A DNA stretch of 55,006 nucleotides from contig JAFTVX010000037.1 of NCBI GenBank assembly GCA_017465575.1, forward strand, positions 1-55,006, in the 5' to 3' direction. Shown one piece after another: positions 10,650-49,232 of the stretch. The stretch is from Alistipes sp. Lineage in GTDB: Bacteria; Bacteroidota; Bacteroidia; Bacteroidales; Rikenellaceae. The translations under genes were made by a program, and so were the position numbers. Positions within the stretch are counted from its first letter, which is position 1. Each line of letters opens with the position of its first letter. The notes beneath the pieces were generated by a model. It was not told where the DNA came from. It searched no databases and saw only the letters and a program-made list of their open reading frames with translations.

Positions 10650-11195
10650 ATGAAAGAGACAATAATCATTGCAGGTTTTGGAGGACAGGGTGTCCTCACT
10701 ATGGGTAAGATTTTGGCTTACTCTGGCATTATGCAGGACATGGAGGTTACTTGGATGCCCTCTTACGGTCCTGAGATGCGTGGCGGTACCGCCAATGTTA
10801 CCGTTATCCTCTCGGATAAGGCTATTTCTTCACCTATCGCTCACGAGTTCGACTGCGTAGTTGTCCTCAACCAGCAGTCTATGGACAAGTTCGAGAGCCA
10901 GGTAAAGCCCGGTGGCGTACTCATCTACGACACCAACGGTATCACCAACCACCCCACTCGTACCGACATCAGCGTTTACCAGATTGACGCTACGGCAGAG
11001 TGCGCACGCCTCGGTCAGGCTAAGTTGTTCAACACCATGATTCTCGGTGCTTACCTCAAGGTTCGCCCTGTTGTTAAGATGGAGAATGTAATGGCTGGTT
11101 TGAAGAAGACTTTGCCCGAGCGTGCTTGGAAGATGCTTCCCCAGAACGAGGAGGCTATTAAGCATGGTGGTGAGATTATTCGCCAGATCCGATAA
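10650..11195 (+). CDS. korC: 2-oxoacid:ferredoxin oxidoreductase, gamma subunit
   Basis: A 181-residue protein beginning with the family motif IAGFGGQGVLTMGKILAYSG and containing YGPEMRGGTANVTVILSD, which mark the gamma (catalytic-domain) subunit that contacts CoA. It completes the operon. The stop codon TAA (11193-11195) is the first three bases of the 130-bp palindrome described next. Confidence 0.92.
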   Translation: MKETIIIAGFGGQGVLTMGKILAYSGIMQDMEVTWMPSYGPEMRGGTANVTVILSDKAISSPIAHEFDCVVVLNQQSMDKFESQVKPGGVLIYDTNGITNHPTRTDISVYQIDATAECARLGQAKLFNTMILGAYLKVRPVVKMENVMAGLKKTLPERAWKMLPQNEEAIKHGGEIIRQIR

Positions 11196-11320
11196 TTTCT
11201 CGTGATAGCGGCGCATTAGCGACGCTTCAGTCAAAAGCCCGAATGAGCAGTACGCCAAGTACAGCCCATCCGGGCTTTCTCGTGTCAGCGCCACTACTGC
11301 ACCACTCTGACGAGAAATAT
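11193..11320 (+). repeat. Flush-stop palindrome, copy A (after korC)
   Basis: The element begins with TAATTTCTCGTGA, in which TAA is the korC stop codon, and ends with TGACGAGAAAT. The inner stem (AAAGCCCG...CGGGCTTT) closes a conserved core, GAGCAGTAC/GTACAGCCC. About 128 bp; one of nine copies in this window. It probably acts as an operon-end terminator, but its length and strict placement are beyond an ordinary terminator. Confidence 0.7.
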
Positions 11321-11340
11321 TGGGGAGTGCTGGTTGGGAG

Positions 11341-11503
11341 GTTTAGATTGCGCTCCGTTGAGTGCCTGCTTCGCAGAGGGGTCTGAGTGGTCTAAGGGGT
11401 CAAAGGGGTTGCGCTTGTTCCAAGCGCTGGCTACGCCCCTTTTACCTCTTGTACCCCTTTTACCCCTTGGGGCGTAGCCCGCAGGCAAAACGCCTGCTCT
11501 TAG
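11341..11503. repeat. Alpha-type iterated fold-back block
   Basis: Degenerate units (agaggggtctgagtggtcta...) on one arm are followed by their complement (cccttttacctcttgtacccc) around ggttgcgcttgttccaagcgc, and the block ends with the small hairpin gcaggcaaaacgcctgc. Sister blocks lie at 17150-17320 and 11950-12085. No gene is seen from here to 11621. Confidence 0.6.
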
Positions 11504-11545
11504 TCCCCCTCAATTCAACTATTTTTGAAAAAATATTAAGAATAG

Positions 11546-11577
11546 TTTGGCGGATTGGAAATTTTGTTGTAATTTAG
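11546..11577 (+). promoter_or_regulatory. Possible promoter of the small HTH gene
   Basis: TTTG at 11546-11549 is followed after 20 bases by TAATTTAG (11570-11577), one base off the -7 consensus. An AT-rich leader leads to the ATG at 11622. Confidence 0.35.
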
Positions 11578-11621
11578 TATCGTAAAACGAAATTAATATT
11601 AATCTTAATAAGCACTAAATT

Positions 11622-11867
11622 ATGATTATCACATTTAACGAGTTGCGCCGCATTAAGGATAAGTTGCCTTCAGGTAGCTCGCAGCGCATTGCAGACGAAT
11701 TGGGTATTGATGTTGAGACTGTTCGTAACTACTTTGGTGGCCAGCACCTTGATGCTAAGGCTTGCTCTGGTATCCACATCGAGCAGGGCCCCGATGGTGG
11801 CGTTGTAACTTTGGACGACACTACCATTTTTGATGCTGCAATGCGTATTCTTAACGAGCAGAAATAA
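11622..11867 (+). CDS. Small helix-turn-helix protein
   Basis: This 81-residue protein has a helix-turn-helix in its first half (SSQRIADELGIDVETVRNYFGG) and a short C-terminal part (EQGPDGGVVTLDDTTIFDAAMRIL). It resembles small DNA-binding proteins widespread in Bacteroidetes with no assigned function. It is monocistronic: an AT-rich leader of about 40 bases upstream and a strong terminator downstream. Codon use is close to that of the ribosomal proteins, which hints at high expression. Confidence 0.7.
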   Translation: MIITFNELRRIKDKLPSGSSQRIADELGIDVETVRNYFGGQHLDAKACSGIHIEQGPDGGVVTLDDTTIFDAAMRILNEQK

Positions 11868-11908
11868 TTTTACATTATAAGGCAGACATCTTGCTGCTTA
11901 TAAAGAGT

Positions 11909-11946
11909 AAAACCCCTCGGGCTATATTGTCCCGAGGGGTTTTCGT
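11909..11946 (+). terminator. Intrinsic terminator
   Basis: The 13-bp stem AAAACCCCTCGGG (11909-11921) pairs with CCCGAGGGGTTTT (11931-11943). It ends the small HTH transcript. Confidence 0.8.
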
Positions 11947-11949
11947 TAT

Positions 11950-12085
11950 GTGGTAGGCGCAGAGGAAAGGGGTATTAGAGGTAAGAGGGGCAAGAGAGGA
12001 GATGCTATCAACAAAAAACACTTGTAACCCTCGTACCCCTCATACCCCTTAGAGCGTTAGCCCGCAGGCGGAACGCCTGCTCACT
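11950..12085. repeat. Alpha-type block without the 130-bp palindrome
   Basis: Contains agaggaaaggggtattagaggtaag on one side and ccctcgtacccctcataccc on the other, ending in gcccgcaggcggaacgcctgc as in the alpha blocks at 11341 and 17150. Here it stands alone behind a normal terminator. Confidence 0.55.
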
Positions 12086-12115
12086 TTTTGCTCATTGCTA
12101 ATTTCTCATTACTCA

Positions 12116-12145
12116 TTGCTCTTTTATAAAAAATTTGTATCTTTG
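12116..12145 (+). promoter_or_regulatory. Promoter of the HU-CCDC81/sigma-54 operon
   Basis: TTG (12116-12118), 19-base spacer, TATCTTTG (12138-12145). The position shows that translation cannot begin at the upstream in-frame start near 12095; GTG 12173 is the first good start downstream. Confidence 0.6.
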
Positions 12146-12172
12146 CACGATTATACGCTTATAACATTCGAA

Positions 12173-12997
12173 GTGAAGCTTTTAACCAATATAATCGGCG
12201 AGTATCTTAAACACAACAAGCGACTTGTTGTGCCTAAGCTTGGCACCTTTATCGTCAAGGCGCAGGGCGGAGCCATTCTCTTCTCCGACCTTATGCGTGG
12301 CGACGATGGCGTGCTACGCTCGTTGCTTATGGCCTACGGTATGAAGGAGTTGGAGGCTAACGGCCTTATCGACCGCCTTGTCTTCGAGGTGCGCCATGCC
12401 ACATCGCGTGGCGAGAGCTACACCATCGAGGGTCTTGGCGACTTCACGCAGGGTCCGAACAACACCCTCACCTTCCGCCAGAAGCGCGAGAAGGTTGTTA
12501 TCGGCGGAAACATCAAGCCCCCTGTTGAGACTCTCGTAGACGAGCAGCGCAAGATGGAGCGTGTACGACAGCGTCAGGAGGCCGAGAGTGCTCCCACTCA
12601 GCGCAAGAAGCAAAAGGAGCAAAAGCGTGAGAAGGTGCGCCCCACGAAGGTCGAGGAGGAGGACGACATCATCTCGATGACCAAGCCCGACTCCTATCTT
12701 CGAGGCTTGAAGTACGACCAGAAGAAGAACAAGAAGCGCGACGAGGACTTTATGATTCCCGAGACTCAGCGCCACGGTGGTCGCAACATGCTCATTATGC
12801 TTATTGCCGCCATCATCGTGGGCATTGCCGTATGGTTTGTATGGCAATACCTCAACTCGAACTACACCCTAACCTTAAATAGCAATATTGAGCCCACCGT
12901 AACCGAGGCAGTGGAGCTCCGCGACAGCACCGACTTAATGGAGCCTCGCGACACTGTAACCTCGGATAGTGTAACATTGGTAAATCCCAGCTTATAG
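12173..12997 (+). CDS. HU-CCDC81 domain protein with one membrane helix
   Basis: The 274-residue product begins, from GTG, with KLLTNIIGEYLKHNKRLVVP. The N-terminal half matches the bacterial HU-CCDC81 domain pair seen in Bacteroidetes. A charged linker (about 120-195, rich in R, K, E and Q) follows, then one membrane helix (MLIMLIAAIIVGIAVWFVW) and an acidic C-terminus outside. SPOR-type proteins in this phylum share this layout, but no SPOR domain is visible here. It heads an operon with a sigma-54 activator and LptE. A link between nucleoid and envelope is an inference. Confidence 0.75.
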   Translation: MKLLTNIIGEYLKHNKRLVVPKLGTFIVKAQGGAILFSDLMRGDDGVLRSLLMAYGMKELEANGLIDRLVFEVRHATSRGESYTIEGLGDFTQGPNNTLTFRQKREKVVIGGNIKPPVETLVDEQRKMERVRQRQEAESAPTQRKKQKEQKREKVRPTKVEEEDDIISMTKPDSYLRGLKYDQKKNKKRDEDFMIPETQRHGGRNMLIMLIAAIIVGIAVWFVWQYLNSNYTLTLNSNIEPTVTEAVELRDSTDLMEPRDTVTSDSVTLVNPSL

Positions 12998-12999
12998 GT

Positions 13000-14202
13000 A
13001 TGACAAACGAGCTTTTTTCGGTAAAGCAGCGTTTCGGCATCATAGGCAATGCCGAGGCACTAAACAACGCATTGGAGGTTGCTATGCGTGTAGCCCCCAC
13101 CGAACTCTCGGTGTTGGTTACGGGCGAGAGTGGTGTAGGTAAGGAGTTCTTCCCACAGGTTATCCACGCCTATTCGGCACGCAAGCACAACAAATATATC
13201 GCCGTGAACTGCGGTGCTATTCCCGAGGGCACTATCGACTCTGAGCTTTTCGGCCACGAGAAGGGCTCATTTACGGGCGCTATCGACAGCCGTAAGGGTT
13301 ATTTCGAGGAGGCCGATGGCGGCACCATCTTCCTCGACGAGGTTGGCGAGTTGCCCCTCTCGACCCAGGTGCGACTACTGCGTGTGTTGCAGACTGGCGA
13401 GTTTATGCGCGTAGGTTCGGCCAAGGTGCAGAAGACAAATGTGCGTGTAGTAGCAGCCACGAACAACGACCTTATGAAGGCTATCTCGGAGGGTCGCTTC
13501 CGCGAAGATTTATACTATCGTCTTAACACCGTGCCTATCGCCGTGCCTCCGTTGCGTGAGCGCAAGGGCGATATCTACCTCCTTTTCCGCAAGTTCGCCA
13601 GCGATGTAGCAGTGCAGTATCGTATGCCTGCCGTTACGCTTGACGAGGGTGCGCGTGCCGTGTTGGAGAGCTACCACTGGCGAGGCAACATCCGCCAGTT
13701 GAAGAATGTTGCCGAGCAGATTTCGGCTATCGAGGAGAGTCGTAACATCACCGCCGATATTCTTCGTCGCTACCTACCCAACGAGGGTAGCCACCAGCCT
13801 ATGACGGGCAACTACTCGTCGTACGACGATATGTCGGAGCGCGAATTGCTATACAAGATACTCTTCGACATGCGCAACGACATCAACGACCTTAAACGCA
13901 TGATGACTGCCGCCATGTCGCGCGTTCAACCCACCGAGGCTGAGCCTGTGCGCCACGATGTGGTGGGCCTTTTGCCCCAGTCAGCACCACAGCCCCGCTA
14001 CGAGGAGAACTCGTTTGCCGAGGTTGTCGAGGATGACGACGAGCGCGAGATAACAAAGGAGGATGTTCAGCGTGAGCAGATTTTGCGCGCCTTGCGCAAC
14101 AACAACTATCGCCGTAAGGAGACCGCCAAAGAGCTCTTTATCTCGGAGCGCACGCTCTACCGCAAGATGAAGGCCTTGGGCATCGACGACGATATTAAAT
14201 AG
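13000..14202 (+). CDS. Sigma-54-dependent transcription activator without a receiver domain
   Basis: A 400-residue protein. The AAA+ sigma-54 interaction domain spans about 15-240: Walker A GESGVGKE, the ELFGHEKGSFTGA loop (GSFTGA in place of GAFTGA), Walker B GGTIFLDEVGELP and the arginine-finger region REDLYYRLN. The C-terminus carries a Fis-type HTH (LRNNNYRRKETAKELFISER). There is no response-regulator or GAF domain, so activity must be controlled by other means or constitutively. It starts 2 bases after the HU-CCDC81 gene. Targets are unknown. Confidence 0.9.
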   Translation: MTNELFSVKQRFGIIGNAEALNNALEVAMRVAPTELSVLVTGESGVGKEFFPQVIHAYSARKHNKYIAVNCGAIPEGTIDSELFGHEKGSFTGAIDSRKGYFEEADGGTIFLDEVGELPLSTQVRLLRVLQTGEFMRVGSAKVQKTNVRVVAATNNDLMKAISEGRFREDLYYRLNTVPIAVPPLRERKGDIYLLFRKFASDVAVQYRMPAVTLDEGARAVLESYHWRGNIRQLKNVAEQISAIEESRNITADILRRYLPNEGSHQPMTGNYSSYDDMSERELLYKILFDMRNDINDLKRMMTAAMSRVQPTEAEPVRHDVVGLLPQSAPQPRYEENSFAEVVEDDDEREITKEDVQREQILRALRNNNYRRKETAKELFISERTLYRKMKALGIDDDIK

Positions 14203-16574: not shown

Positions 16575-17012
16575 ATGGAAGTAATTCTTATCAAAGATGT
16601 AGAGAACTTGGGTTACGCTAACGACATCGTTAATGTTCGCCCTGGCTATGCAAACAACTACTTGATTCCTCAGGGTTTCGCTAAGGCTGCTACTGCTTCT
16701 GCAAAGAAGGTATTGGCAGAGAACCTTCGTCAGCGCGCTCACAAGGACGCTAAGATTTTGGCTGACGCTCAGGCTTTGGCTGAGACTATCGCTAACATTA
16801 AGCTCACCATCACCGCTAAGGCTGAGGAGGAGAAGATCTTCGGTGCTGTTACCGCTGCTGACCTTGCTGCTGCACTTCAGGAGAAGGGCATCGAGGTTGA
16901 CCGTAAGAACATCGTTGTTGACTCAGTTAAGACCTTGGGTGAGTATGAGGCAGTTGCTAAGCTTCACCGCGAGGTTAAGGCTACTATCAAGTTTGCTGTA
17001 GTAGCAGAGTAA
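16575..17012 (+). CDS. rplI: Ribosomal protein bL9
   Basis: A 145-residue L9 protein: N-terminal domain MEVILIKDVENLGYANDIVNVRPGYANNYLIPQGFA-type signature, a central helix, and the C-terminal RNA-binding domain. It is the last gene of the operon; its stop TAA (17010-17012) forms the first bases of a flush-stop palindrome. Confidence 0.97.
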   Translation: MEVILIKDVENLGYANDIVNVRPGYANNYLIPQGFAKAATASAKKVLAENLRQRAHKDAKILADAQALAETIANIKLTITAKAEEEKIFGAVTAADLAAALQEKGIEVDRKNIVVDSVKTLGEYEAVAKLHREVKATIKFAVVAE

Positions 17013-17139
17013 TTTCTCGTGAAAAGGGGTCATTCTCGACCCATCACATAAGTAAGACCCCTCGGGCTGTACCTTTGTACTATCCCGAGGGGTCTTCTTT
17101 TGCGATGAGCCAAGCCTAACCCCTTTTGACGAGAAATTA
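17010..17139 (+). repeat. Flush-stop palindrome, copy B (after rplI)
   Basis: The most regular copy: 130 bp, beginning TAATTTCTCGTGAAAAGGGG and ending CCCCTTTTGACGAGAAATTA. The inner stem GACCCCTCGGG/CCCGAGGGGTC holds the core GGGCTGTAC...GTACTATCCC. The first TAA is the rplI stop codon. Confidence 0.75.
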
Positions 17140-17149
17140 GGGAGGCTAC

Positions 17150-25003: not shown

Positions 25004-25166
25004 GAAGCTGCTTAAAATTTATTTATTTCATTCTTTTATTCTGTTTACGACTCTTTTCTCATATTATTCTCGTTACATAGGAACCCCTATGCGCCTCAAA
25101 TCATATGAGAAAATAGCCACAAAACAGATTATAAAATAATTTCACAAACAAAATTTAAGCAGCTTC
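25004..25166. repeat. 163-bp palindromic element upstream of dnaG
   Basis: The terminal arms GAAGCTGCTTAAAATTT (25004-25020) and AAATTTAAGCAGCTTC (25151-25166) are inverted copies. Inside, ATTCTGTTT pairs with AAAACAGAT, TTCTCATAT with ATATGAGAA, and a small hairpin cataggaacccctatg sits at the tip. The layout is like a MITE or a long cruciform; no coding capacity. Confidence 0.6.
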
Positions 25167-25193
25167 CGAGGAATGAGCAATTAGCAATAAATT

Positions 25194-25316
25194 GTTAGCG
25201 CAGAGAGAGGTCAGAGAGAGAACAGAGAGAGGTCAGAGAGAGGTCAGAGATACTGCGGATAACGCAATCAGCCCTCACTGAATTCTCCCTGATAACTCTC
25301 TGATAACTCCCCACGA
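25194..25316. repeat. Beta-type iterated fold-back block
   Basis: The left arm repeats gagagaggtcagagaga units; the right arm has ctctgataactctctgataactcc. The loop is tactgcggataacgcaat, identical to that of the block at 26225-26370. Confidence 0.6.
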
Positions 25317-25319
25317 CCC

Positions 25320-25446
25320 AAATTCTTGTCAGAAGGGGTTAGGCTTGGCTTATCGCAAAAGAATCCCCCGAGGGATAGTACAAATAGTACAGCCCTTGGG
25401 GGATTACTTTTGCGATAGACCGCATATTGCGGCTTTTCACGACAAA
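25320..25446 (-). repeat. Flush-stop palindrome, orphan copy C
   Basis: Same family as copies A and B (ATTCTTGTCAGAAGGGGTTAGG at the far end, GGGATAGTAC...GTACAGCCC core, cttttcacgac at the near end), oriented as for a minus-strand gene. No gene ends at it; the sequence beyond is the region before a plus-strand promoter. Confidence 0.6.
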
Positions 25447-25506
25447 GACCTATATATATAATACAATACCCCGCCGATGAGTGTTGTTCGTTCGCGAAAA
25501 AATACA

Positions 25507-26180: not shown

Positions 26181-26224
26181 ATAAATGAGCAATGAGAAAA
26201 GAGCAATGAGGAATTAGCAATAAA

Positions 26225-26370
26225 TTGTTAGCGCAGAGAGAGAACAGGGAGAGAACAGGGAGAGAACAGAGAGAGGTCAGAGAGAGGCAGAGAGAGGTCA
26301 GAGATACTGCGGATAACGCAATCTGCCCTCCCTGAATTCTCCCTGATAACTCTCTGATAACTCCCCACGA
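26225..26370. repeat. Beta-type iterated fold-back block
   Basis: Units gagagaacagg/gagagaggtca repeat on the left and ctctgataactcc on the right, around the same loop as at 25194-25316. It lies directly beyond flush-stop palindrome copy D. Confidence 0.6.
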
Positions 26371-26373
26371 CCC

Positions 26374-26502
26374 AAATTCTTGTCAGAAGGGGTTAGGCTT
26401 GGCTTATCGCAAAAGAATCCCCCAAGGGATAGTACAAAATAGTACAGCCCTTGGGGATTACTTTTGGGATAGGTCGAGAATGACCCCTTATCACAAGAAT
26501 TT
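26374..26502 (-). repeat. Flush-stop palindrome, copy D (end of DUF2461 gene)
   Basis: 129 bp with perfect ends AAATTCTTGT and ACAAGAATTT. The near end encodes the last codons of the minus-strand gene: AAA TTC TTG TGA (Lys-Phe-Leu-stop). Core GGGATAGTAC...GTACAGCCC. Confidence 0.72.
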
Positions 26503-27162
26503 CGCGTATTCGATGGCTCGATTAACTTGGTCAAGAAACGGCTTGCACCTTTTGAAGAGTTCGGCGGTTTGCTCTAACCAGTCGGGCTGCAAGAGCCACT
26601 CCGAAGTAATTGGGCGCGAGAGACATAGCTCGCGCTGGCGAAGGAGGTACTCATATTCGGGAGCTACCGAGAAACCTCGCGGTGTGCGCTTTAGGGCGTT
26701 GTCGGTGGTGAGGCTGAAGCCACTATGGGCGATGTTATCGACCATCTCTTGGGCGTGGTCCTCAATCTCCTCGCGCATACTGCGCAGCACTTCGGGTTCG
26801 GGGCATACATTGCCCGCAGCGAGAAATGAGCCCTCACCCCAAGTGTGACCCTTGGGCGAGATATGCAGATAGTAGCCACCATAGCCACTACGCTTGCCAC
26901 CACGCACAATAAAGGCGCTGAGGAAATCTTTGTAGGGCGTCTTATCCTTCGAGAAGCGGGTATCGCGGTAGATGCGATAGGTGCTTGTCGCAATGGTCGC
27001 ACCCTCGACCGAGGGGTCGAACTCCGAGATAAGCTCGATAAGTCGCTCGACATTGGCATTATGCTTCTGAAGCACACGACGATAGCGCTCGCGGTTAGCC
27101 TCAAACCACTCGCGATTGTTGTTGTCGTGGAGGTCGGAAAGGAACGATAATATCTCTTTCAC
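26491..27162 (-). CDS. DUF2461 family protein
   Basis: A 223-residue protein matching DUF2461: FLSDLHDNNNREWFEANRERY, TYRIYRDTRFSKDKTPYKDF and GGYYLHISPKG. No enzymatic role is established for this family. It stands alone on the minus strand. Its last three residues and stop are inside the 130-bp palindrome, so the original C-terminus may have been altered by the element. Confidence 0.85.
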   Translation of the reverse strand: MKEILSFLSDLHDNNNREWFEANRERYRRVLQKHNANVERLIELISEFDPSVEGATIATSTYRIYRDTRFSKDKTPYKDFLSAFIVRGGKRSGYGGYYLHISPKGHTWGEGSFLAAGNVCPEPEVLRSMREEIEDHAQEMVDNIAHSGFSLTTDNALKRTPRGFSVAPEYEYLLRQRELCLSRPITSEWLLQPDWLEQTAELFKRCKPFLDQVNRAIEYAKFL

Positions 27163-27194
27163 GGGAGAGGGGGTGTTAGTTTTTAGTTGTTAGA

Positions 27195-27320
27195 TGTTAG
27201 CGCAATTGATAGAGAATTTAGGGAGGTTAGGGAAATTAGGGAAGTTAGGGAAGCGCGACCGGCATTTATCCTTAAACTCCCTACTCTCCTTAAACTCTTT
27301 AAACTCCCTAATTAACCACC
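27195..27320. repeat. Gamma-type iterated fold-back block
   Basis: Units tttagggaggttagggaaattagg are followed by a loop gcgcgaccggcatttatcc and the complement ttaaactccctactctcc. It abuts copy E of the flush-stop palindrome. Short ttagttgttag units precede it, so the gap 27163-27466 holds repeats only. Confidence 0.6.
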
Positions 27321-27338
27321 TACCAATCAGCACTACCC

Positions 27339-27469
27339 TAATTTCTTGTCAGAAGTAGTGAGATGTGGCGCATCGTAAAAAGGAACCACCGAGGGATAGT
27401 ACAAGAAGTACAGCCCTCGGTGGTTAACTTTAGGATGCGTCGCAGATTACCGCTTATCACAAGAAATTA
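27339..27469 (-). repeat. Flush-stop palindrome, copy E (after glyA)
   Basis: 131 bp, from TAATTTCTTGTCAG to CACAAGAAATTA; the terminal TTA (27467-27469) is the glyA stop codon on the minus strand. Core CCGAGGGATAGTAC...GTACAGCCCTCGG. Confidence 0.75.
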
Positions 27470-28747
27470 CCACGCGAAGAGGGGATAATTGTTCATCAAC
27501 GCATTCACATCACGGCGAACAGCTGCGATATTCTCCTCGTTCTCGGGGTCGCACAATACGCGGTCGATAAGCTCGGCGATGTAGTCCATCTTATCCTCCT
27601 TGAGACCACGGGTGGTGATTGCAGGAGTACCGAAGCGAAGACCCGATGTGGTGAAGGGGGTACGCGAGTCGAAGGGCACCATATTCTTGTTGGTGGTGAT
27701 GTCGGCGGCTACGAGGCACTTCTCGGCAAGCTTACCAGTAAGCTCGGGGAACTTGGTGCGGAGGTCAACCAACATAAGGTGGTTGTCGGTACCGCCAGAG
27801 ACAATCTTATAACCACGCTTGGTGAGAGCCTCAGCCAACGCCTTGGCATTCTTCACTACCTGCTGCTGGTACTCCTTGTACTCGGGGGTGAGAGCCTCGC
27901 CAAAGGCAACAGCCTTAGCTGCGATAACATGCTCGAGGGGACCGCCCTGGATGCCAGGGAATACTGCAGAGTTAAGGATTTGCGACATCTTCTTCACTAC
28001 GCCCTTAGGTGTGGTGTAGCCCCAAGGATTGTCGAAATCCTTACCCATAAGGATGATACCGCCACGAGGACCACGGAGGGTCTTGTGGGTAGTAGATGTT
28101 ACGATATGTGCATACTTAACGGGGTTATCCAACAAGCCAGCAGCGATAAGACCTGCGGTGTGGGCCATATCGACGAGCAACAACGCGCCAACCTTGTCGG
28201 CAATCTCGCGCATACGCTTGTAGTCCCACTCACGAGAGAATGCCGAAGCACCACCGATGATAAGCTTGGGCTTATGCTCTAATGCCAATGCCTCCATCTC
28301 CTCATAGTCGATATTGCCAGTCTCCTCCTTGAGCTTGTAGCCTACGGCCTTGAAGTACTGACCCGACATATTCACGGGTGAACCGTGTGAGAGGTGACCA
28401 CCGTGCGAGAGGTCGAGACCCATAAAGGTGTCGCCGGGCTTGAGGCAAGCGAAGAAGACTGCCATATTTGCCTGTGCGCCAGAGTGGGGCTGAACATTAG
28501 CATACTCTGCACCATAAATCTTGCAGAGGCGCTCGATAGCGAGGTTCTCAATCTTATCTACCACCTCGCAACCGCCATAGTAGCGTGCTGCGGGATAACC
28601 CTCGGCGTACTTGTTGGTACATACCGAACCCATAGCTGCCATCACCTGATCGCTCACGAAGTTCTCCGAAGCGATAAGCTCGATACCCTTGGTCTGACGC
28701 GAACGCTCCTCGGCGATCAAGTCAAAAATCTGTGAATCTTTGTTCAT
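27467..28747 (-). CDS. glyA: Serine hydroxymethyltransferase
   Basis: A 426-residue PLP enzyme that interconverts serine and glycine with tetrahydrofolate. Visible: [36 protein letters not shown], and the PLP lysine in [15 protein letters not shown]. Single-gene transcript with its own promoter; the stop codon is part of flush-stop palindrome E. Confidence 0.97.
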
Positions 28748-28980: not shown

Positions 28981-28999
28981 TTACCTCCCAATCAGCACT

Positions 29000-29127
29000 C
29001 TTTGTCGTCAAAAGTCGTGAGATGTGAGCTATCGCAAAAATGCCGTCAATGGGCTGTACTTATCATACTGCTCATTGACGGCACTTTTTGAAATGGGACA
29101 AAGGATGCCCCTTATCACAATAAATTA
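29000..29127 (-). repeat. Flush-stop palindrome, copy F (after the FKBP operon)
   Basis: About 128 bp, from TTTGTCGTCAAAAG to CTTATCACAATAAATTA, whose last TTA is the stop codon of the FKBP gene. The core (in gene direction GAGCAGTATGATAAGTAC) matches copy A rather than copies B, D, E and I, so two core subtypes exist. Confidence 0.68.
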
Positions 29128-34776: not shown

Positions 34777-35805
34777 ATGAAACGCTCACTCTTACAAAGG
34801 TTTCTAAGGCTGTTTCCTGCGGGCATGGCGCACTCTCTGCACCTCGCCCTACTCCGTTTTGCGGGCATATTTCCAGGCAAATGGTGGCTTCGTACGACCC
34901 TTGCACCACGCAGCCAAAAGCTTGAGCGCGAGGTGTTTGGCGTACATTTTCGCAACCCCATAGGCATCGCCGCAGGCTTCGACCCCGATGGCGACTATCT
35001 CGACGAGTTGGCAGCTTTGGGCTTCGGCTTTGTGGAGATTGGCTCTGTTATGCCACATATTCAGCCTGGCACACCCCGACCCCGACTCAAGCGCATCAAA
35101 AAGCAAAATTCGTTTATCGACAATTCGGGCTACCCGAGCCGTGGTTTGGAGTATGTATTGAGCAATATCCGACAGCGCACCAAGCACACACGCAACCTTG
35201 TAATCGGCTGTAACATAGGCAAGTGCACATCGACACCCAAGCGCTTAACATCGCGCGAATACCTGCGCGTTTTCCGCAATATGTATCAGTATGTCGACTA
35301 CTTCACGATTAATGCGGCGTGCAACACCTCGGCAAAGCAATATGTGCCTCGCACCCGCGAGGAGCTGTTGGAGCTTGTCGAGCCACTCTTTGAGTTCCGC
35401 CGTGGTCAGCTCGACTACCGCCCCATCCTTCTGAAAATTTCGCCCGACCTTACATACTCCGAGATTGACACCGCCGTCGACATCCTTATCGAGACTCCGC
35501 TCGACGGCATCGTCGCCGTAGCTGGCTCTACGGAGCTTATGCCCGAGGAGCGTGGCGCTGTGTGTGGCTCGTTGCTCACCGAGCGCGCTATCGAGGTTGT
35601 TAGTTATGTCGCCGAGAAGAGTGAGGGCAACTACCCCATCATCGGCACTGGCGGAATGATGACACCCAAAGATATACGCCGTATGTTCGAGGCTGGAGCA
35701 TCGCTCGTTGCTCTGAACAGCGGCATTAGAGAGAATGGATTTAAGCTCCTGCGCAATGCCGTTAAGGAGTTGGAAATGATAAATAAGGTAGGTTCTACAA
35801 ATTAG
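34777..35805 (+). CDS. pyrD: Dihydroorotate dehydrogenase, class 2
   Basis: A 342-residue FMN enzyme: hydrophobic N-terminal helix pair (LRLFPAGMAHSLHLALLRFAG) for membrane/quinone contact, GIAAGFDPDGDY, GFGFVEIGSVMPHIQPG, NAACNTS and IIGTGGMMTPKDIRRMFEAGASLVALNSG. It passes electrons to quinone in pyrimidine synthesis. The last residues (KVGSTN) and the stop TAG are encoded by the terminal repeat of a 197-bp palindrome. Confidence 0.93.
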   Translation: MKRSLLQRFLRLFPAGMAHSLHLALLRFAGIFPGKWWLRTTLAPRSQKLEREVFGVHFRNPIGIAAGFDPDGDYLDELAALGFGFVEIGSVMPHIQPGTPRPRLKRIKKQNSFIDNSGYPSRGLEYVLSNIRQRTKHTRNLVIGCNIGKCTSTPKRLTSREYLRVFRNMYQYVDYFTINAACNTSAKQYVPRTREELLELVEPLFEFRRGQLDYRPILLKISPDLTYSEIDTAVDILIETPLDGIVAVAGSTELMPEERGAVCGSLLTERAIEVVSYVAEKSEGNYPIIGTGGMMTPKDIRRMFEAGASLVALNSGIRENGFKLLRNAVKELEMINKVGSTN

Positions 35806-35981
35806 GTCGAGTTGATTTTGAAGAGTATTTTGAGCCAGATTTCAAATTTCTTCCGATGGCGCAATACGAGTATTGTAACTGAGGAAAAATTTGAAATATG
35901 CCAAAATAAATTCAAAAGCGACCGAAATAGAGTCCACCGACAACGAAAAAAACTTATATCCTAATTTGTAGAACATACCTT
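35785..35981. repeat. 197-bp palindrome filling the pyrD-cinA gap
   Basis: Terminal inverted repeats of 22 bp: AAGGTAGGTTCTACAAATTAGG (35785-35806) opposite its complement at 35960-35981 (one mismatch). Inside, TTCAAATTT...AAATTTGAA, TATTTTG...CAAAATA and a tip hairpin CAATAC-GA-GTATTG pair in register. The left arm is the coding end of pyrD; the right arm ends 3 bases before the cinA ATG. Confidence 0.72.
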
Positions 35982-38667: not shown

Positions 38668-39833
38668 ACACACGGGTAGACTTTTTCCTACCCGTGTGTT
38701 TTTTATGCCCCATTTTTGAAGTTCACCCCCACCAACCGCACGGGTATACTTTTGCCTACCCGTGTAATTTTACACACTCTTTCTACTTTAGAACTCCCCA
38801 ATATCCGCACGGGTATACTTTTACCTACCCGTGTGTGTTTTCTTTCGCCCCCCTTCTGAAACTATCACCTCCATCCGCACGGGTAGGTTTTTGTATACCC
38901 GTGTCATTTTTTATACCCCCTTTTACCTTGGCATTCTCCACAACCGCACGGGTAGGCAAAAACCGACTAGCATCATTGTGGGGGCGAGCATCCTTGATAA
39001 CAACCCCTCAATCCGCACGGGTAGGTTTTTGTATACCCGTGTTATTATTTGCCCCCCTTTTTTTTACCTTGGCATTCTCCACAACCGCACGGGTAGGTAA
39101 GAACCTACTAGCATCATTGTGGAGGCGAGCATCCTTGATAACAACCCCTCCAACCGCACGGGTATACTTTTGCCTACCCGCGTGTTTTTTATGTCTTTTT
39201 TTTGAAGTTCACCCTCACCAACCGCTCGGGTAGACTTTTTCCTACCCGTGTAATTTTACACACTCTTTCTACTTTATCACTCCCCAATATCCGCACGGGT
39301 AGGTAAAAACCTACTAGCATCATTGTGGGGGCGAGCATCCTTGATAACAACCCCTCCAACCCCACGGGTAGGTTTTTGTATACCCGTGTTATTATTTGTC
39401 CCCCCCTTTTTTACCTTGGCATTCTCCACAACCGCACGGGTAGGTAAAAACCTACTAGCATCATAGTTGGGATGAGTCTCCGTTCTTATAATCACCCCTC
39501 CAACCCCACGGGTGGATTTTTGTATACCCGTGTCAGACTGGAACATATCCTCTAATTATATCACCCCCCCCCACAACCGCACGGGTGGGTTTTTGTATAC
39601 CCGCGTCAGACTGGGGTATCTCCTATATTCTTATTACTTTCCCCACAACCTCACGGGTATACTTTTACCTACCCGTGTCATTTTTTAGGATATCTTCACC
39701 ACCTTTATCCTCCCCCACTACCGCACGGGTAGGTTTTTGTATACCCGTGTCATTTTAGGGCACCTTTTTGATATGAAGTTCCACAAACTGCACGGGTAGG
39801 TAAAAACCTACTAACATCATTGTTGGGTGTTGT
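38668..39833. repeat. 17-unit hairpin array with 67-73-bp spacing
   Basis: Each unit begins CACGGGT(A/G) (one has CTCGGGTA). Heads start at 38671, 38739, 38808, 38878, 38947, 39016, 39088, 39157, 39225, 39294, 39363, 39435, 39507, 39580, 39652, 39724 and 39791. Three forms occur. v1 is CACGGGTATAC-TTTT-nCCTACCCGTG; v2 is CACGGGTAGG-TTTTT-GTATACCCGTG; v3 is CACGGGTAGGTAAAAACCTACTAGCATC. v1 and v2 hairpins are followed by T-rich sequence, as a terminator would be. Spacers recur (ttggcattctccacaac three times or more, gcgagcatccttgataacaa four times), showing block duplication. No protein gene is present. Confidence 0.85.
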
Positions 39834-40912: not shown

Positions 40913-40926
40913 AATCAGCACTCAGC

Positions 40927-41056
40927 CAATTTTTGATTAGAAGGGGTTAGCTGTGGCCTCGATAAAGAAATTGCCCTGGATGGATAGTACTTGAAGTACA
41001 TTCCATTCAGGGCAATGATTGAGAGGTCACAGATGACCCCTTATAATCGAAAATTA
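40927..41056 (-). repeat. Flush-stop palindrome, copy G (after the BI-1 gene)
   Basis: 130 bp; far end CAATTTTTGATTAGAAGGGG, near end CCCCTTATAATCGAAAATTA with TTA as the stop of the minus-strand gene. Core GGATAGTAC-ttgaa-GTACATTCC: the pairing bases changed together (GGGCTG/TATCCC to GGAATG/TATCC), which suggests selection on structure. Confidence 0.72.
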
Positions 41057-41752
41057 CTCGCGGTTGCCGCCTAAAATACGAAGCAACATCAAGAAAAGGT
41101 TGATGAAATCAAGATACAATGTAAGCGCACCAAGAAGTGCGAGCTTATGACCACTCTCGTCGGCAGTGCCAAACTGTAGGAAGAGCTGCTTAAGCTTCTG
41201 GGTATCCCACGCGATAAGGCCTGTAAAGATTACCACACCGGCATAAGTCGTTATCCAGTAGAGCATTGTCGATTTAAGGAAGATATTGACAAGGGTGGCG
41301 ATAATAAGACCTATAAGGAGCGTATAGAGCAGGCTGCCCATACGCGAGAGGTCGAGGCGTGTGACATAGCCTACGATGCTCATAGCGAGGAATGTGCCCG
41401 CCGTGACGAAGAATGTGGTGGCTATGGTCTCGCCCGTATAGACAAGGAAGATAGTCGAGAATGTAACACCCGTAAGCACCGAGTAGAGGATAAATAGGAG
41501 TGTTGCTGTTCCCATCGACATATGCATAACGCGCGCCGAGAGCCACAACACAAGACCAAACTCCGCAATGAGGAGAATCCATATTGATGCGGGGTGCATA
41601 AAGATGTACTCGAGGATTGCGGGCGACGATGCTACGAACCAAGCGGTAAGGCCAGTTACTGCCAAGGCGGCTGCCATCTGGATGTAGACGCTCTTAAACA
41701 AGCGACCTACAAGCGCATACGAGGCGCTCTGTGCTGATGAATATTCAACCAT
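41054..41752 (-). CDS. Bax inhibitor-1 / YccA family membrane protein
   Basis: A 232-residue protein with seven predicted membrane helices and the family's C-terminal segment GLIAWDTQKLKQLFLQFGTADES...LALLGALTLYLDFINLFLMLLRILG. Bacterial members (YccA, YetJ) are linked to membrane-protein quality control or act as pH-sensitive Ca2+ leak channels. The ATG lies 16 bases after the tRNA-Arg gene with no promoter between, so it is probably expressed from the tRNA promoter. Confidence 0.88.
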   Translation of the reverse strand: MVEYSSAQSASYALVGRLFKSVYIQMAAALAVTGLTAWFVASSPAILEYIFMHPASIWILLIAEFGLVLWLSARVMHMSMGTATLLFILYSVLTGVTFSTIFLVYTGETIATTFFVTAGTFLAMSIVGYVTRLDLSRMGSLLYTLLIGLIIATLVNIFLKSTMLYWITTYAGVVIFTGLIAWDTQKLKQLFLQFGTADESGHKLALLGALTLYLDFINLFLMLLRILGGNRE

Positions 41753-43914: not shown

Positions 43915-44057
43915 AGTTGTTAGTTGTTAGTTTTTAGACCATTAGGACTTTAAGACCTTAAGACCATACGAGGTCGGATATCACTTTTATCTTAATGTCT
44001 TATCGTCTTATTGGTCCTATAGTCTTAAAAAACTCTAACAACTAAACTCTAACAACT
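43915..44057. repeat. Delta-type block with ttagttgttag units
   Basis: Units ttaggactttaagaccttaagacc and their complement tcttaatgtcttatcgtcttattgg, flanked by tagttgttag and aactctaacaactaaa. It abuts the partial palindrome copy H. Confidence 0.55.
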
Positions 44058-44133
44058 AAAAAGAGCGAATGGAATATGCTCGATTTTCCATTCGCTCTTT
44101 AGACTGATAATGGCCCCTTTTCACAACAAATTA
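44058..44133 (-). repeat. Flush-stop palindrome, half copy H (after DUF3127 gene)
   Basis: Only the near end (CCCCTTTTCACAACAAATTA, TTA = stop codon) and an inner hairpin, AAAGAGCGAATGGA/TTCCATTCGCTCTTT, are present. The far arm is missing. Confidence 0.55.
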
Positions 44134-46543: not shown

Positions 46544-46566
46544 TGCTGTATTTGAGTTTGTTTTGT

Positions 46567-48129
46567 TTACTTAAACGAGTCGGGCAGGTCGTTCTCATAG
46601 AGGACAACATCGCCCACCTTGAGCTGGGGTTGCAGAGCCGCCATAGCCTCCTGGAACGAAGCCACCGCAGCCACCTTCGCCTTATCGTAGCCACCATCGG
46701 CTAAGCCCTGAGTGATAGCCTCACGGTTGACCTCATTGACAACATATACGCCATCGGGGTTAGCGTGGGCGATATCCGAGCCAAACACGCGGTTATTATC
46801 GTACTGCTTCGAGCCCATCTCCACAAAGCCAGGGGTCACGACATACTTCTTACCCTCGGTAGCGAAATCGCGTAACACCTCCAACGCCATACGCGCACCC
46901 GCGGGGTTGGAGTTATAGGCATCGTCAAGGATTGTGATGCCTCCATTACGACGCATACTCAAGCGGTGCTCAACCTGCTCAATCTGCTTTACGGCACGAC
47001 GGCAGGCATCCACCGAGACGCCAAGGTGCTCGGCAATAGCCAGCGCAGCCGTGATATTGAGGATGTTGCCACGACCAAGGATATGCGTAGCATAGCCCTC
47101 GTCTACCCTACCATCGTGGCACAATGCAAACGATGTCTCGGTAGCAGAATATGCAATATTCGTAGCGCGATAGTCCGCCTCCGTGTTCTCGATAGAGTAG
47201 GTCAACGCCTTGATATTGTTGCCCTTATGGTGGCGATATGCCGCCTCGGAGTCGATATTTACCACACCTACGCCACCCTCGGGCAGAGCATCGATAAGCT
47301 CAAACTTGGTGCGAGCGACATTCTCTACTGAGCCAAAGGTCTCGAGGTGCATCTCGCCTACCGAGGTGACGATACCCATCGTGGGGCATACCAAATCGCA
47401 AATCTCCTTGATATCGCCACTCTGCTTGGCACCCATCTCGACGATAAATACCTCGTGGTGAGGCTTAAGGTGCTCACGCACAGTACGCACAACGCCCAAG
47501 GTGGTGTTGAAGTTACCGGGGGTCATCACGACATTGTACTTTTCGGACAATATGCGATAGAGAAAGTGCTTGGTAGATGTCTTGCCAAAGCTACCTGTGA
47601 TGCCGATAATCTTCAGGTGGGGCATCGAGCGCAAGCGGCGCTTGGCATCGTTGTAGTACCAACGGGTGATTGCCATCTCCAAGGGTCGGTTGATGGCGTT
47701 GGCAAGGATAATCCAGTAGTCCAAGGTCATCAGCAACAACAGAGGCATTGCATAGCAATCATCGAGATAGTGTGCACCTACCATTGCCACCGCAACAAGC
47801 AGATAGCGTGTTGCTAACAAGCGCTTAACACGCATCGTATAGGCAAGCTTTATCTTGTACTCAATCTTAAACTCCGCAATGGCGATAACCAACATCCATA
47901 GACCAAGGAGCAACAGCACCGCCCAATGCTGAGTAAAGAGCGTAACAACAGCACCCACCACAGCCAACATATTTGCACGCGAATACCACTCGCCAGTCTG
48001 TTTTAGCCAGCGGTTGTAGCGCTCGATGCGGTAGCTATTCTGCTGAAACATCTGCGTTGAATAGCGCACCGTGGCAACTAAAAACCATACCCACGCAAAG
48101 CAGAAGAAATATGTGATTATGCTCTCCAT
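46567..48129 (-). CDS. murF: MurF-type ligase with an N-terminal membrane domain
   Basis: A 520-residue protein. Residues 1 to about 150 hold four or more hydrophobic helices in place of MurF's usual soluble UDP-binding domain. The rest is Mur-ligase: IIGITGSFGKTSTKHFLY, TPGNFNTTLGV, FIVEMGAKQSGDI, NIDSEAAY, ILDDAYNSNPAGARMALEVL. It would add D-Ala-D-Ala to UDP-MurNAc-tripeptide at the membrane. It lies between the hydrolase (3-base gap) and ddl (23 bases). A paralogue with another acceptor is possible. Confidence 0.85.
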   Translation of the reverse strand: MESIITYFFCFAWVWFLVATVRYSTQMFQQNSYRIERYNRWLKQTGEWYSRANMLAVVGAVVTLFTQHWAVLLLLGLWMLVIAIAEFKIEYKIKLAYTMRVKRLLATRYLLVAVAMVGAHYLDDCYAMPLLLLMTLDYWIILANAINRPLEMAITRWYYNDAKRRLRSMPHLKIIGITGSFGKTSTKHFLYRILSEKYNVVMTPGNFNTTLGVVRTVREHLKPHHEVFIVEMGAKQSGDIKEICDLVCPTMGIVTSVGEMHLETFGSVENVARTKFELIDALPEGGVGVVNIDSEAAYRHHKGNNIKALTYSIENTEADYRATNIAYSATETSFALCHDGRVDEGYATHILGRGNILNITAALAIAEHLGVSVDACRRAVKQIEQVEHRLSMRRNGGITILDDAYNSNPAGARMALEVLRDFATEGKKYVVTPGFVEMGSKQYDNNRVFGSDIAHANPDGVYVVNEVNREAITQGLADGGYDKAKVAAVASFQEAMAALQPQLKVGDVVLYENDLPDSFK

Positions 48130-48132
48130 ACG

Positions 48133-48897
48133 CTACTCGATATTAAGAAATGAGCCCAACGATGTAAACCACAACTCGGGCTGCTCCAACATAGCAAAGT
48201 GACCTGCACCCTCGGCAACAGCCATAATTGTGTCGGGCATCTTGCGCGTCATCGTATAGGCATCCGTGATGGGTGTTGCGGTATCCTTGTCGCCCCAGAA
48301 GAGCAATACGGGAGCCTTGACACTCGGCATAAGGTGCTGTAAATCTTCGTTTACGACCTTCGACAATATGGCTCGCATCATCGGCGTAGCACGGTTGTAG
48401 TCCGAAGAGCCCGACTTACGACGGCGCTGGTCAACAAGCATCTGCGCCTTCTGCTTGCCAATAAGGATAGGCAAGAGGTGCTTCATCAGCTTAAAGGAGT
48501 AGACCTTGTAGTAATAACTCAACTTACGGCGAGGCTTAACGCCCGCAGCATCCGTAAGCACCACACGCTCCACCTCGTTACGCGAAGCATAGACGATGGC
48601 TACACGACCACCAAACGAGTGACCAATAAGCGTGGGACGCTCGATGCCGAGCTCTCTCGCCAACGCCTCGACGGAGCGGGTATACTCCTCGACACCCCAC
48701 ACCTCGCGAGGCTCGTCGCTAAGACCAAAGCCCGCAAAATCGACCGTAACAACACGCTTCGACCTCTTTAGCCACTCGCGCGTAGCCACCCAGATATTGC
48801 GGTCGCAACCCCAGCCGTGCAACAGCATCACCGTATCTCCCTCACCCTCAACGGAGTAGGCAAGTTCGACACCCTCATATTTATATCGTGCATCCAT
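48133..48897 (-). CDS. Alpha/beta hydrolase
   Basis: ATG at 48897 gives 254 residues (MDARYKYEGVELAYSVEGEG). The fold is shown by HGWGCD (oxyanion hole), LIGHSFGGRV (nucleophilic Ser), FWGDKDTATP (acid) and EGAGHFAMLEQPE (His). The substrate is unknown. The longer in-frame start at 49032 lies upstream of the promoter and is rejected. First gene of the murF-ddl operon; the promoter leaves only 5 bases of leader. Confidence 0.85.
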   Translation of the reverse strand: MDARYKYEGVELAYSVEGEGDTVMLLHGWGCDRNIWVATREWLKRSKRVVTVDFAGFGLSDEPREVWGVEEYTRSVEALARELGIERPTLIGHSFGGRVAIVYASRNEVERVVLTDAAGVKPRRKLSYYYKVYSFKLMKHLLPILIGKQKAQMLVDQRRRKSGSSDYNRATPMMRAILSKVVNEDLQHLMPSVKAPVLLFWGDKDTATPITDAYTMTRKMPDTIMAVAEGAGHFAMLEQPELWFTSLGSFLNIE

Positions 48898-48902
48898 AAA
48901 CG

Positions 48903-48933
48903 CAAAGGTACGAAAAAAAGAGCAAAGAGCAAA
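48903..48933 (-). promoter_or_regulatory. Consensus promoter, 5 bases from the hydrolase start
   Basis: On the minus strand TTTG (48933-48930), 19 bases, TACCTTTG (48910-48903), then 'cgttt' and ATG. The full consensus and the short distance point to a leaderless mRNA. Confidence 0.68.
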
Positions 48934-48967
48934 ATAGTTAGGAGTTTTTAGTTGGGAGTTTTTAGCG

Positions 48968-49090
48968 CAGTCGAAAGTGAATTTAGGGAAATTAAAGAAT
49001 TTAGAGAAGTTAGTGATGAGCGCTACCGACATTTATCCTTAAACTCCTTACTCTCACTAAACTCATTAAATTCCCTAATATAACCACCTA
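48968..49090. repeat. Gamma-type iterated fold-back block
   Basis: Units gaatttagggaaattaaag, the loop gagcgctaccgacatttatcc, then the complement ttaaactccttactctcactaaactc. It abuts copy I. No gene is seen in 48934-49220. Confidence 0.6.
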
Positions 49091-49101
49091 CCTACCAGCC
49101 C

Positions 49102-49232
49102 AAATTTCTCGTCAGAAGGGGTGTAATTTGTTTTATCGCAAAAGAATCCCCCAAGGGATAGTACTAAAAGGTACAGCCCTTGGGGGATTACTTTTGGGAT
49201 AGGACGAAAGATGCCCCTTATCACGAGAAATT
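49102..49232 (-). repeat. Flush-stop palindrome, copy I (end of the RibH-like gene)
   Basis: About 130 bp with ends AAATTTCTCGTCAG and TCACGAGAAATT. The near end encodes Asn-Phe-Ser-stop (AAT TTC TCG TGA) of the minus-strand gene. Core GGGATAGTAC...GTACAGCCC. Confidence 0.75.

What the first reader, a model, noticed from the sequence alone, without database searches (positions are those of the whole stretch)
11193..49232. A directional family of about 130-bp palindromes fused to stop codons of operon-end genes
Eight operon ends carry the same element placed with no gap: korC (11193), rplI (17010), DUF2461 (26502), glyA (27469), FKBP (29127), BI-1 (41056), DUF3127 (44133, half copy) and the RibH-like gene (49232). 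The near end is TAATTTCTYGTGAtAAGGGG and the far end CCCCTTCTGACRAGAAATTA. The orientation relative to the gene is the same each time. Length is 128-131 bp in seven full copies. Ordinary terminators in this window are about 35 bp and show no such sequence identity. Precise fusion to stop codons suggests a mobile element that targets or makes gene ends, or gene conversion between 3' ends. Mobilisation by a REP-associated Y1 transposase is a hypothesis; none is in the window.
Basis: partly seen in the sequence, partly recalled or inferred. Interest (0 to 1): 0.87.

Follow-up and report, generated by a model that had tools for sequence, protein, structure and literature searches.

The report
Palindromes welded to bacterial stop codons
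Gut bacteria of the Alistipes group carry many copies of a 130-letter mirror-image DNA element placed right at the ends of genes, and the last 13 codons of those genes carry silent changes that go with it, which suggests that the element works together with the gene it follows.

Summary
In the window's genome (Alistipes-like, inferred from named relatives) I placed 143 copies: 63 start on the first base of the upstream gene's stop codon, 90 lie within -17..+9 nt, and 23 are second copies in tandem. The far end is not anchored. Relatives agree (60 of 103 at offset 0; distant genomes 44 of 61 within 12 nt); in distant genomes the stop may be TAA, TAG or TGA. The arms covary.

The model matches 96 of 180 genus genomes and 1 of 294 others sampled from the order. 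No Y1/RAYT gene appeared in 25 genus genomes. At the same gene ends a relative with about 90% identical genes has other variants, half copies or plain terminators.

New: the host coding sequence carries a silent imprint anchored to the element. Third-base C is 0.39 of expectation at codons -13..-6; at -5..-2 C is raised and G and T lowered (170 ends; 760 ends without the element lack this). No effect on predicted mRNA folding; comparisons argue against wobble avoidance and a mutation hotspot. I read it as selection on a functional 3'-end module; the role is open.

The parts
11193..11321 (+). full copy, offset 0 on the TAA of the POR gamma-subunit gene (korC)
17010..17140 (+). full copy, offset 0 on the TAA of rplI
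25318..25448 (-). full copy not at a gene end; shares a long tract with the 26372 copy including downstream sequence
26372..26503 (-). full copy, offset -10: DUF2461 gene reads into it and stops at element TGA
27338..27469 (-). full copy, offset 0 on the TAA of glyA
28997..29127 (-). full copy, offset 0 on the FKBP gene; outer arms do not match, as if left by recombination within a tandem pair (inference)
40926..41056 (-). full copy, offset 0 on the BI-1 (Bax1-I) gene; outer arms changed on both sides with pairing kept
44056..44133 (-). half copy: near arm plus ordinary terminator, on the TAA of the DUF3127 gene (inner edge approximate)
49101..49233 (-). full copy, offset -10: RibH-like gene stops at element TGA
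11154..11191 (+). imprint region of the korC CDS (-39..-2 relative to element); the signal is statistical over many genes, not proven at this one
27471..27508 (-). imprint region of the glyA CDS; CCC CTC TTC GCG TGG here, CCT TTG TTT GCT TGG in the G017 ortholog without the element, but CCT CTC TTC GCG TGG in the G004 ortholog, also without it
41058..41095 (-). imprint region of the BI-1 CDS (statistical signal only)

Best explanation
The element is a resident 3'-end module of genes. From the stop codon outward it has a long imperfect stem whose core is a short terminator-like hairpin, in most window copies with a T-rich tail; being a palindrome, it could end transcription from both sides. Shown: exact placement at stop codons with fixed orientation, arm covariation, different variants at the same gene ends of related genomes, and a silent imprint in the last 13 codons of the host gene, anchored to the element rather than to the stop. 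Inferred: the imprint is selection because the module works together with about 38 nt of upstream sequence (a C-poor tract, then a C-rich tract poor in G and T), probably in transcription termination or mRNA 3'-end protection by a factor that reads the nascent RNA or the DNA there. Also inferred: the stop codon has to sit at the foot of the stem so that ribosomes neither translate nor melt it, and variants spread between gene ends mainly by ectopic copying of cores or whole 3' regions (gene conversion or template switching), with no dedicated transposase shown.
For: Placement: 63 of 143 copies at offset 0 and 90 of 143 within -17..+9; 60 of 103 at 0 and 86 of 103 within -10..+11 in relatives; 44 of 61 within 12 nt, 21 at 0, in seven distant genomes, with TAA, TAG and TGA stops. 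Model-free palindrome scan in G000: 44 of 163 free gene ends have a long palindrome, 26 starting at -15..+12 and 17 at +13..+250; in five other genomes 18 of 324 free ends, 14 starting at -15..+12. Pairing: 90.0% of cells paired against 77.6% shuffled and 44-47% slid; 29 of 40 pairs with two-sided changes (the alignment was fitted to the model's structure and includes reverse-strand readings). Tip tetranucleotide exactly complementary in 92 of 112 copies across many variants. Imprint: 170 fused ends, against the interior codon usage of the same genes: third-base C O/E 0.39 at codons -13..-6 (T 1.42, G 1.22); C 1.43, G 0.57, T 0.61 at -5..-2. 760 free ends without the element: C 0.93 and 0.78, G 0.95 and 0.92, T 0.99 and 1.01. 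331 free ends with a strong predicted hairpin near the stop: C 0.96 and 0.82. In the offset -10 class (14 copies) the C-rich part clearly moves with the element. Same genes without the element: zone-2 C3 0.30 against 0.56, 26 genes; 0.29 after dropping two doubtful ones. Synonymous identity in zone 2 is 0.39 in 75 pairs where one has the element (interior 0.61), 0.64 in 48 pairs where both have it (interior 0.67), 0.55 in 119 pairs where neither has it (interior 0.64). Rare codons are taken up: GGG 9/0.4 in zone 1, TCC 10/0.5 in zone 2; controls 21/18 and 21/9. Copying; paralog tracts bounded by the element on different contigs, 131/134 and 126/127 identical.
Against: No expression data. No factor identified. 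The imprint has no effect on predicted mRNA folding (59 copies, MFE 0.72 +- 0.33 kcal/mol weaker than recoded; partial transcripts of 90 ends, |z| under 1), so its physical reader is unknown; on the complementary strand small shifts were seen (z -3.3 and +2.6). It was found post hoc in G000, then replicated in relatives (60 copies) and in G136 (13 copies, both zones). In G060 (15 copies) only zone 1 shows it; zone-2 C is not raised and G is raised. In G055+G058+G053 (11 copies) it is weak (zone-1 C 0.33 against 0.38 upstream). Third-base A is raised in zone 2 (1.71) but equally at ends without the element (1.67), so it is not part of the signal. The C-poor part moves less clearly in the -10 class, and the +6..+12 class (13 copies) is unclear. 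Outer-arm departures on the sense strand are mostly A.C (86) rather than G.U (8), the opposite of what selection on an mRNA stem predicts, though they come from few subfamilies; the inner core leans to G.U, 44 against 29. 53 of 143 copies are tandem, unassigned or away from a stop. In the distant genomes opposite-strand stops also lie within -40..+30 of the far end in 12 of 61 copies, 4 of them within 12 nt.
Confidence: 0.45

Rival explanations
1. A selfish MITE-like mobile element, moved by an unidentified transposase, that inserts at gene ends (for example at the TA of stop codons and regenerates TAA with its first base).
For: Element-bounded near-identical copies on different contigs; a full copy plus a far-half relic downstream of glyA in G043; near-end stubs of 9-11 nt in front of some copies as if nested; [X][Y] against [Y] at one orthologous site; in the main clade base 1 is usually T of TA (93 of 116).
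Against: No PF01797 in 25 genomes; no DDE_3 above its cut-off in 25; no match in viral contigs by pattern or in phage and plasmid records by blastn. TAG and TGA stops are fused too in distant genomes. It does not by itself explain the silent imprint. Only three transposase/RT families were tested.
Confidence: 0.25
2. REP/REPIN element moved by a RAYT (Y1) transposase.
For: Imperfect palindrome with recurrent mismatches, high copy number, tandem arrays, extragenic.
Against: No Y1 gene in 25 of 25 genus genomes, although the search rings in E. coli and Bacteroides controls; about 130 bp rather than 20-40 bp units.
Confidence: 0.03
3. The imprint is insertion-site preference: the element lands only in genes whose ends already have this base composition.
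For: The imprint is anchored to the element and differs between orthologs with and without it. The glyA ortholog of G004, without the element, already has CTC TTC GCG codons.
Against: A base preference read at every position would shift codon position 2 as well; zone-2 position-2 T rises instead of falling, though position-2 G falls. Codons almost absent from the interiors of these genes (GGG, TCC) are enriched far beyond controls.
Confidence: 0.12
4. The imprint is a local mutational or repair footprint of a long palindrome, filtered by purifying selection.
For: Mostly silent changes; Pro is rarer in zone 1 and Gly in zone 2.
Against: Where both orthologs carry the element, synonymous identity in the zones (0.64, 0.61) is close to interior (0.67), so this is no hotspot. 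Zone 1 loses C without losing A, and zone 2 loses T as well as G, which fits no single deamination pattern.
Confidence: 0.1

Closest known systems
ERIC / IRU / RU-1 (enterobacterial 127-bp repeats)
   Same: 127-bp palindromic repeat, intergenic, transcribed with neighbouring genes, can fuse to a gene's 3' end and remove its normal stop; orientation matters for its effect on the upstream mRNA (passages of PMC2229807; PMC2759123)
   Different: Sequences were not compared; the passages seen do not report exact placement on stop codons at most sites nor a silent imprint in the host gene; different phylum
REP / BIME / REPIN with RAYT (Y1) transposase
   Same: Imperfect palindromes, high copy number, clusters
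   Different: No Y1 gene in 25 genus genomes; whole unit about 130 bp, against 20-40 bp for REPs (abstract of PMC3733652 in the listing); exact stop anchoring
Intrinsic (Rho-independent) transcription terminators
   Same: Core hairpin, in most window copies followed by a T-rich stretch (seen in the sequences); half copies look like plain terminators
   Different: Covarying outer arms extend about 45 nt on each side to the stop codon; repeated family; imprint absent at other gene ends with a strong nearby hairpin
RUP / Correia-type MITEs (TA at the ends, IS630-like transposases for RUP; passages of PMC2229807)
   Same: Palindromic, small, TA at the near end in most copies of the main clade
   Different: No DDE_3 above cut-off in 25 genomes; TAG and TGA stops used in distant genomes
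HMP2 palindromic candidate RNAs of Bacteroidetes (PMC8040213)
   Same: Palindromic, three examples of 80-132 bp mostly or entirely in Bacteroidetes, predicted terminators (passages)
   Different: Sequences not compared; no stop anchoring or coding imprint in the passages seen

Membership tests
REP/REPIN | Cognate RAYT (Y1_Tnp) gene in the genome or genus | tested here: not met
   PF01797: 0 of 25 genomes, control rings in 6 of 14
REP/REPIN | 20-40 bp palindromic unit with a conserved tag | tested here: not met
   Unit about 130 bp with nested arms
ERIC | Sequence homology to the 127-bp consensus | not tested
   ERIC consensus not compared; no Rfam family at gathering score over the window except a tRNA
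TA-target MITE (IS630 type) | TA target duplication at empty/filled sites | tested here: inconclusive
   No clean empty site; base 1 T in 93 of 116; TAG/TGA fusion in distant genomes
TA-target MITE (IS630 type) | Autonomous partner with a DDE_3 transposase | tested here: not met
   0 of 25 over cut-off; two weak sub-threshold hits, in G002 and G018, which had no element match
Intrinsic terminator | GC-rich hairpin followed by a U tract | tested here: inconclusive
   By eye TTCTTTT, TTTCTTTA or TTTTTG after most window cores, weaker (TTTCTC) at 11193; the pattern scan of 25300-29300 hits 2 of the 4 copies there, 7 hits in all against 3.7 expected
Intrinsic terminator | Transcription ends there in vivo | not testable with these tools
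   No RNA data
Retro-element | Reverse transcriptase in copy-rich genomes | tested here: not met
   PF00078 not found in G000, G011, G017, G021 and G022; found in copy-rich G003 and G006

The most novel reading that the evidence does not exclude
A new kind of gene-end module that unites coding sequence and 3' UTR: a stop-anchored covarying palindrome plus a 38-nt composition code (24 nt C-poor, then 14 nt C-rich and poor in G and T) written into the last 13 codons through silent substitutions and even rare codons. Unknown machinery reads both, at the foot of the stem whatever the stop codon is. It would be a coding-region signal for 3'-end formation that evolves together with a fast-changing repeat.
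Probability: 0.35. Interest if true: 0.9.

Novelty: new variant of a known kind. Interest (0 to 1): 0.8.

Why it matters
Palindromic repeats of bacteria are mostly seen as selfish or loosely regulatory, and stop codons are not usually thought to be part of a repeat. Here the position is exact, is kept across much of a genus with all three stop codons, and the neighbouring genes differ at silent sites in step with it. If that is selection, it is evidence of function for such a repeat from sequence alone, with a clear experimental handle: recode 13 codons, or remove one arm. If the imprint is a signal for 3'-end formation, coding ends carry information about how transcripts finish, which bears on terminator design, codon-usage models and the mostly unmeasured 3' UTRs of Bacteroidales.

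Tried and rejected
RAYT/Y1: searched, none. Reverse transcriptase as driver: not found in G000 and four other copy-rich genomes, found in two others. IS630-type DDE_3: none over cut-off. Box C/D kink-turn (GUGAUAA / CUGA look-alike): the pairing register does not fit, worked out by hand only; no Rfam hit in the window. RNA-structure reason for the imprint: no effect in full or partial transcripts on the sense strand. Wobble/codon-speed reason: TCG, AAG and GAG are avoided in zone 2 although tRNAs with matching C34 anticodons occur in held sequence of relatives. DNA target composition: codon position 2 does not follow. A CDS-end/near-arm hairpin (CACAAG..CTTGTG) was considered by eye and dropped, since codons did not follow the arm variant. 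Terminator proximity alone: 331 ends with strong nearby hairpins show no imprint. Half copies (33 found by pattern, many by eye spurious) show zone 1 in part (C 0.59) and no zone 2. First thought to be part of the signal and then dropped: raised third-base A in zone 2, which controls share. Literature: the seven searches listed no report of this element or of a stop-anchored repeat with a silent imprint; that is limited to the open library searched, of which I saw listings, and passages of three papers.

Counting notes: the 143-copy table was compiled by hand, taking the better strand; stretches outside C27, C9, C40 and the window were chosen because they hold matches. In one search, 150 of 478 first-look candidates were scored. 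Gene calls are my own ORF rule, not an annotation. In one search, 150 rows include reverse-strand readings of the same copies; one search uses 113 rows. Of the 26 orthologs taken as lacking the element, two have a loosely similar near arm (one, L037, is a real match) and rplI of G043 is half-like. Ortholog pairs are not independent. In one search, nine loci that overlap others or are cut (L316, L320, L323, L328, L330, L332, L334, L337, L339), and L399, were left out; one search then dropped copies sharing many 20-mers.
Full report
What is in the window. Eight full copies and one half copy of a 128-134 bp imperfect palindrome are present. A further copy at 25318-25448 stands away from any gene end. 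The eight full copies fold with z -6.2 to -11.5 against shuffles, the half copy with -3.05. Rfam gives only a tRNA in the window at gathering score.

Genome and taxon. The window is contig C44 of a 1.95-Mb genome in 47 contigs. The same pattern found nothing in viral contigs, and blastn of one copy found nothing in phage or plasmid records. With the covariance model at E 1e-6 and strict filters, 96 of 180 genomes of the genus match, this one included. Of 294 other genomes drawn from the order 1 matches; that one, G391, belongs to another family.

Position. I placed 143 copies of this genome relative to gene ends. 63 begin exactly at the stop codon's first base, 11 at -10 and 90 within -17..+9. 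23 are second or later members of tandem arrays about 130 bp further on. 13 have no gene assigned and 17 are elsewhere. The far end is near an opposite-strand stop (-60..+30) in 6. In relatives found by a pattern that leaves base 1 free, 60 of 103 are at 0 and 86 of 103 within -10..+11. In seven distant genomes 44 of 61 are within 12 nt, 21 at 0, and the abutting stop is TAA, TAG or TGA; there the far end has an opposite-strand stop within -40..+30 in 12 of 61, 4 of them within 12 nt. So the stop codon itself is not a fixed part of the element. Of 137 gene ends with free space in 447 kb, 28 carry the element. A search for long palindromes that uses no sequence model agrees: in G000 44 of 163 free ends have one, 26 starting at -15..+12 and 17 at +13..+250; in G043 7 of 67 (6 anchored), G004 3 of 118 (1), G391 3 of 49 (3), G055 1 of 44 (1), G060 4 of 46 (3).

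Anatomy. Outward from the loop there is a terminator-like hairpin, a middle stem, and an outer stem TAATTTCTTGTGATAAGGGG / CCCCTTCTGACAAGAAATTA. The mismatches G12.G and T14.C recur, and the same asymmetry is seen in the copies of G391. Arms covary: 90.0% of cells pair (shuffled 77.6%, slid 44-47%), and 29 of 40 pairs have changes on both sides (the alignment is fitted to the model). The outer tip occurs in many variants, and in 92 of 112 copies both arms match exactly. Sense-strand departures in the outer stem are A.C (86) far more than G.U (8); in the core G.U (44) exceeds A.C (29). The core thus behaves like a selected RNA stem, while the outer arms do not clearly do so, but these counts come from few subfamilies.

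Turnover. G043 (isolate SIG165) is syntenic with window 0.5-40.7 kb at 85-99% identity over aligned stretches, yet its gene ends differ. At korC it has a short hairpin and an ordinary terminator after the stop; at rplI a half-like end; at FKBP a half copy; at DUF2461 a different core in the same outer arms; at glyA a full copy followed by a far-half relic. The DUF2461 and glyA copies of G043 look nearly identical to each other over a tract bounded by the element (by eye). In G000, copies on different contigs match over the element alone (131/134, 126/127) or over the element plus the downstream linker and hairpins. Copying between 3' ends is therefore likely. Whether it is conversion or transposition is not settled, and clean empty sites were not found.

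Enzymes. No Y1 transposase in 25 genus genomes, no DDE_3 above cut-off, and no reverse transcriptase in G000 and four other copy-rich genomes, though G003 and G006 have one. Other enzyme families were not tested.

The silent imprint. In genes with the element at offset 0, third codon positions -37..-16 are poor in C (0.129 against 0.33 in 70 free ends and 0.27 in 86 operon-internal ends), and positions -13..-4 are rich in C (0.524 against 0.26). The pattern repeats in 60 relative copies (0.117 and 0.496). Corrected for amino acid (123 ends), it spans codons -13 to -2. Over 170 ends, against interior codon usage of the same genes, C is 0.39 of expectation in zone 1, and in zone 2 C 1.43, G 0.57, T 0.61; the 760 ends without the element give C 0.93 and then C 0.78, G 0.92, T 1.01. 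Third-base A is raised in zone 2 in both groups (1.71 and 1.67), so it is a general gene-end feature. 331 ends with a strong predicted hairpin close to the stop lack the imprint. In the offset -10 class (14 copies) the C-rich part moves with the element, the C-poor part less clearly; the +3/+4 class (18) moves as expected in the C-rich part; the +6..+12 class (13) is unclear. For 26 of the same genes, orthologs taken as lacking the element have zone-2 C3 0.30 instead of 0.56 (0.29 for 24 after dropping two doubtful ones). Synonymous identity in zones 2 and 1 is 0.39 and 0.47 in 75 pairs differing in the element (interior 0.61), 0.64 and 0.61 in 48 pairs both having it (interior 0.67), 0.55 and 0.64 in 119 pairs lacking it (interior 0.64). 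Codons nearly absent from the interiors appear: GGG 9 against 0.4 expected in zone 1 and TCC 10 against 0.5 in zone 2, with controls at 21 against 18 and 21 against 9.

What the imprint is not. Random synonymous recoding does not change predicted mRNA pairing. Codons read by matching C34 anticodons are avoided as well. A mutational hotspot would lower identity between pairs that both carry the element, and it hardly does. A target preference would shift codon position 2 in the same way; position-2 G falls in zone 2 but T rises. Selection on a nucleotide-level function of the 38 nt next to the stem is the reading I prefer. Results against generality: in distant genomes both zones are clear in G136 (13 copies), only zone 1 in G060 (15, with zone-2 G raised), and the signal is weak in G055, G058 and G053 (11).

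Mechanism offered. The element is a gene-end module for ending transcripts and guarding them, with the stop codon fixed at the foot of its stem and the last codons tuned to it. Steps shown: placement, covariation, variant replacement, imprint.

Known relatives. ERIC is the nearest in size and setting (passages of PMC2229807, and PMC2759123). REP/REPIN fails on the transposase and the unit size. Palindromic candidate RNAs of Bacteroidetes in PMC8040213 may be related, but their sequences were not compared (passages). The literature searches made listed nothing describing this element.

Noticed in passing
window 25157-25316, 26201-26370, 27159-27330; L038-L057 downstream of copies: Downstream of the element many 3' regions hold a second long hairpin whose arms are short tandem repeats (by eye at least six classes, units about 8-11 bp, e.g. 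TTTARGGAG, TAAGACCATTAGGACC, GGGGTAYAAG, CAGAGAGRTTT), often followed by a short-repeat tail (CTCTTTG, AACTAAC). Which class follows a gene differs between G000 and G043.
   Followed up: partly
window about 35787-35975: A second palindromic insertion with ends AGGTAGGTTCTACAAATTAGG and CCTAATTTGTAGAACATACCT is absent at the same place in G043; similar sequence follows several other genes of G000.
   Followed up: no
C9:7506 in G000 against L148 (SIG165): At the same gene one genome has one copy and the other has an extra copy on the stop side; near-end stubs of 9-11 nt before some copies also suggest that new copies arrive at the gene-proximal end.
   Followed up: partly
L085 (JAGBCY010000010.1) against C27:171394: One gene end is 99.3% identical with G000 while glyA of the same genome is 87% identical: a hint of recent exchange between species, or of binning error.
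   Followed up: no
G391 (another family of the order): L316, L323, L330, L337: Palindromes with other outer arms but the same GTGATAA / TTCTGAC asymmetry, also on or near stop codons, some followed by what looks like the start of another copy.
   Followed up: partly
window 38718-39827: Array of hairpin-like repeats around CCGCACGGGTA...TACCCGTG: 11 copies of a 68-nt family, mostly about 70 or 140 bp apart.
   Followed up: no
G000 C27:64218, C9:84939-86120, C9:104428-105228: A 7-bp repeat TAGTTNT starts right on the stop codon (TAG) of several genes without the palindrome.
   Followed up: no
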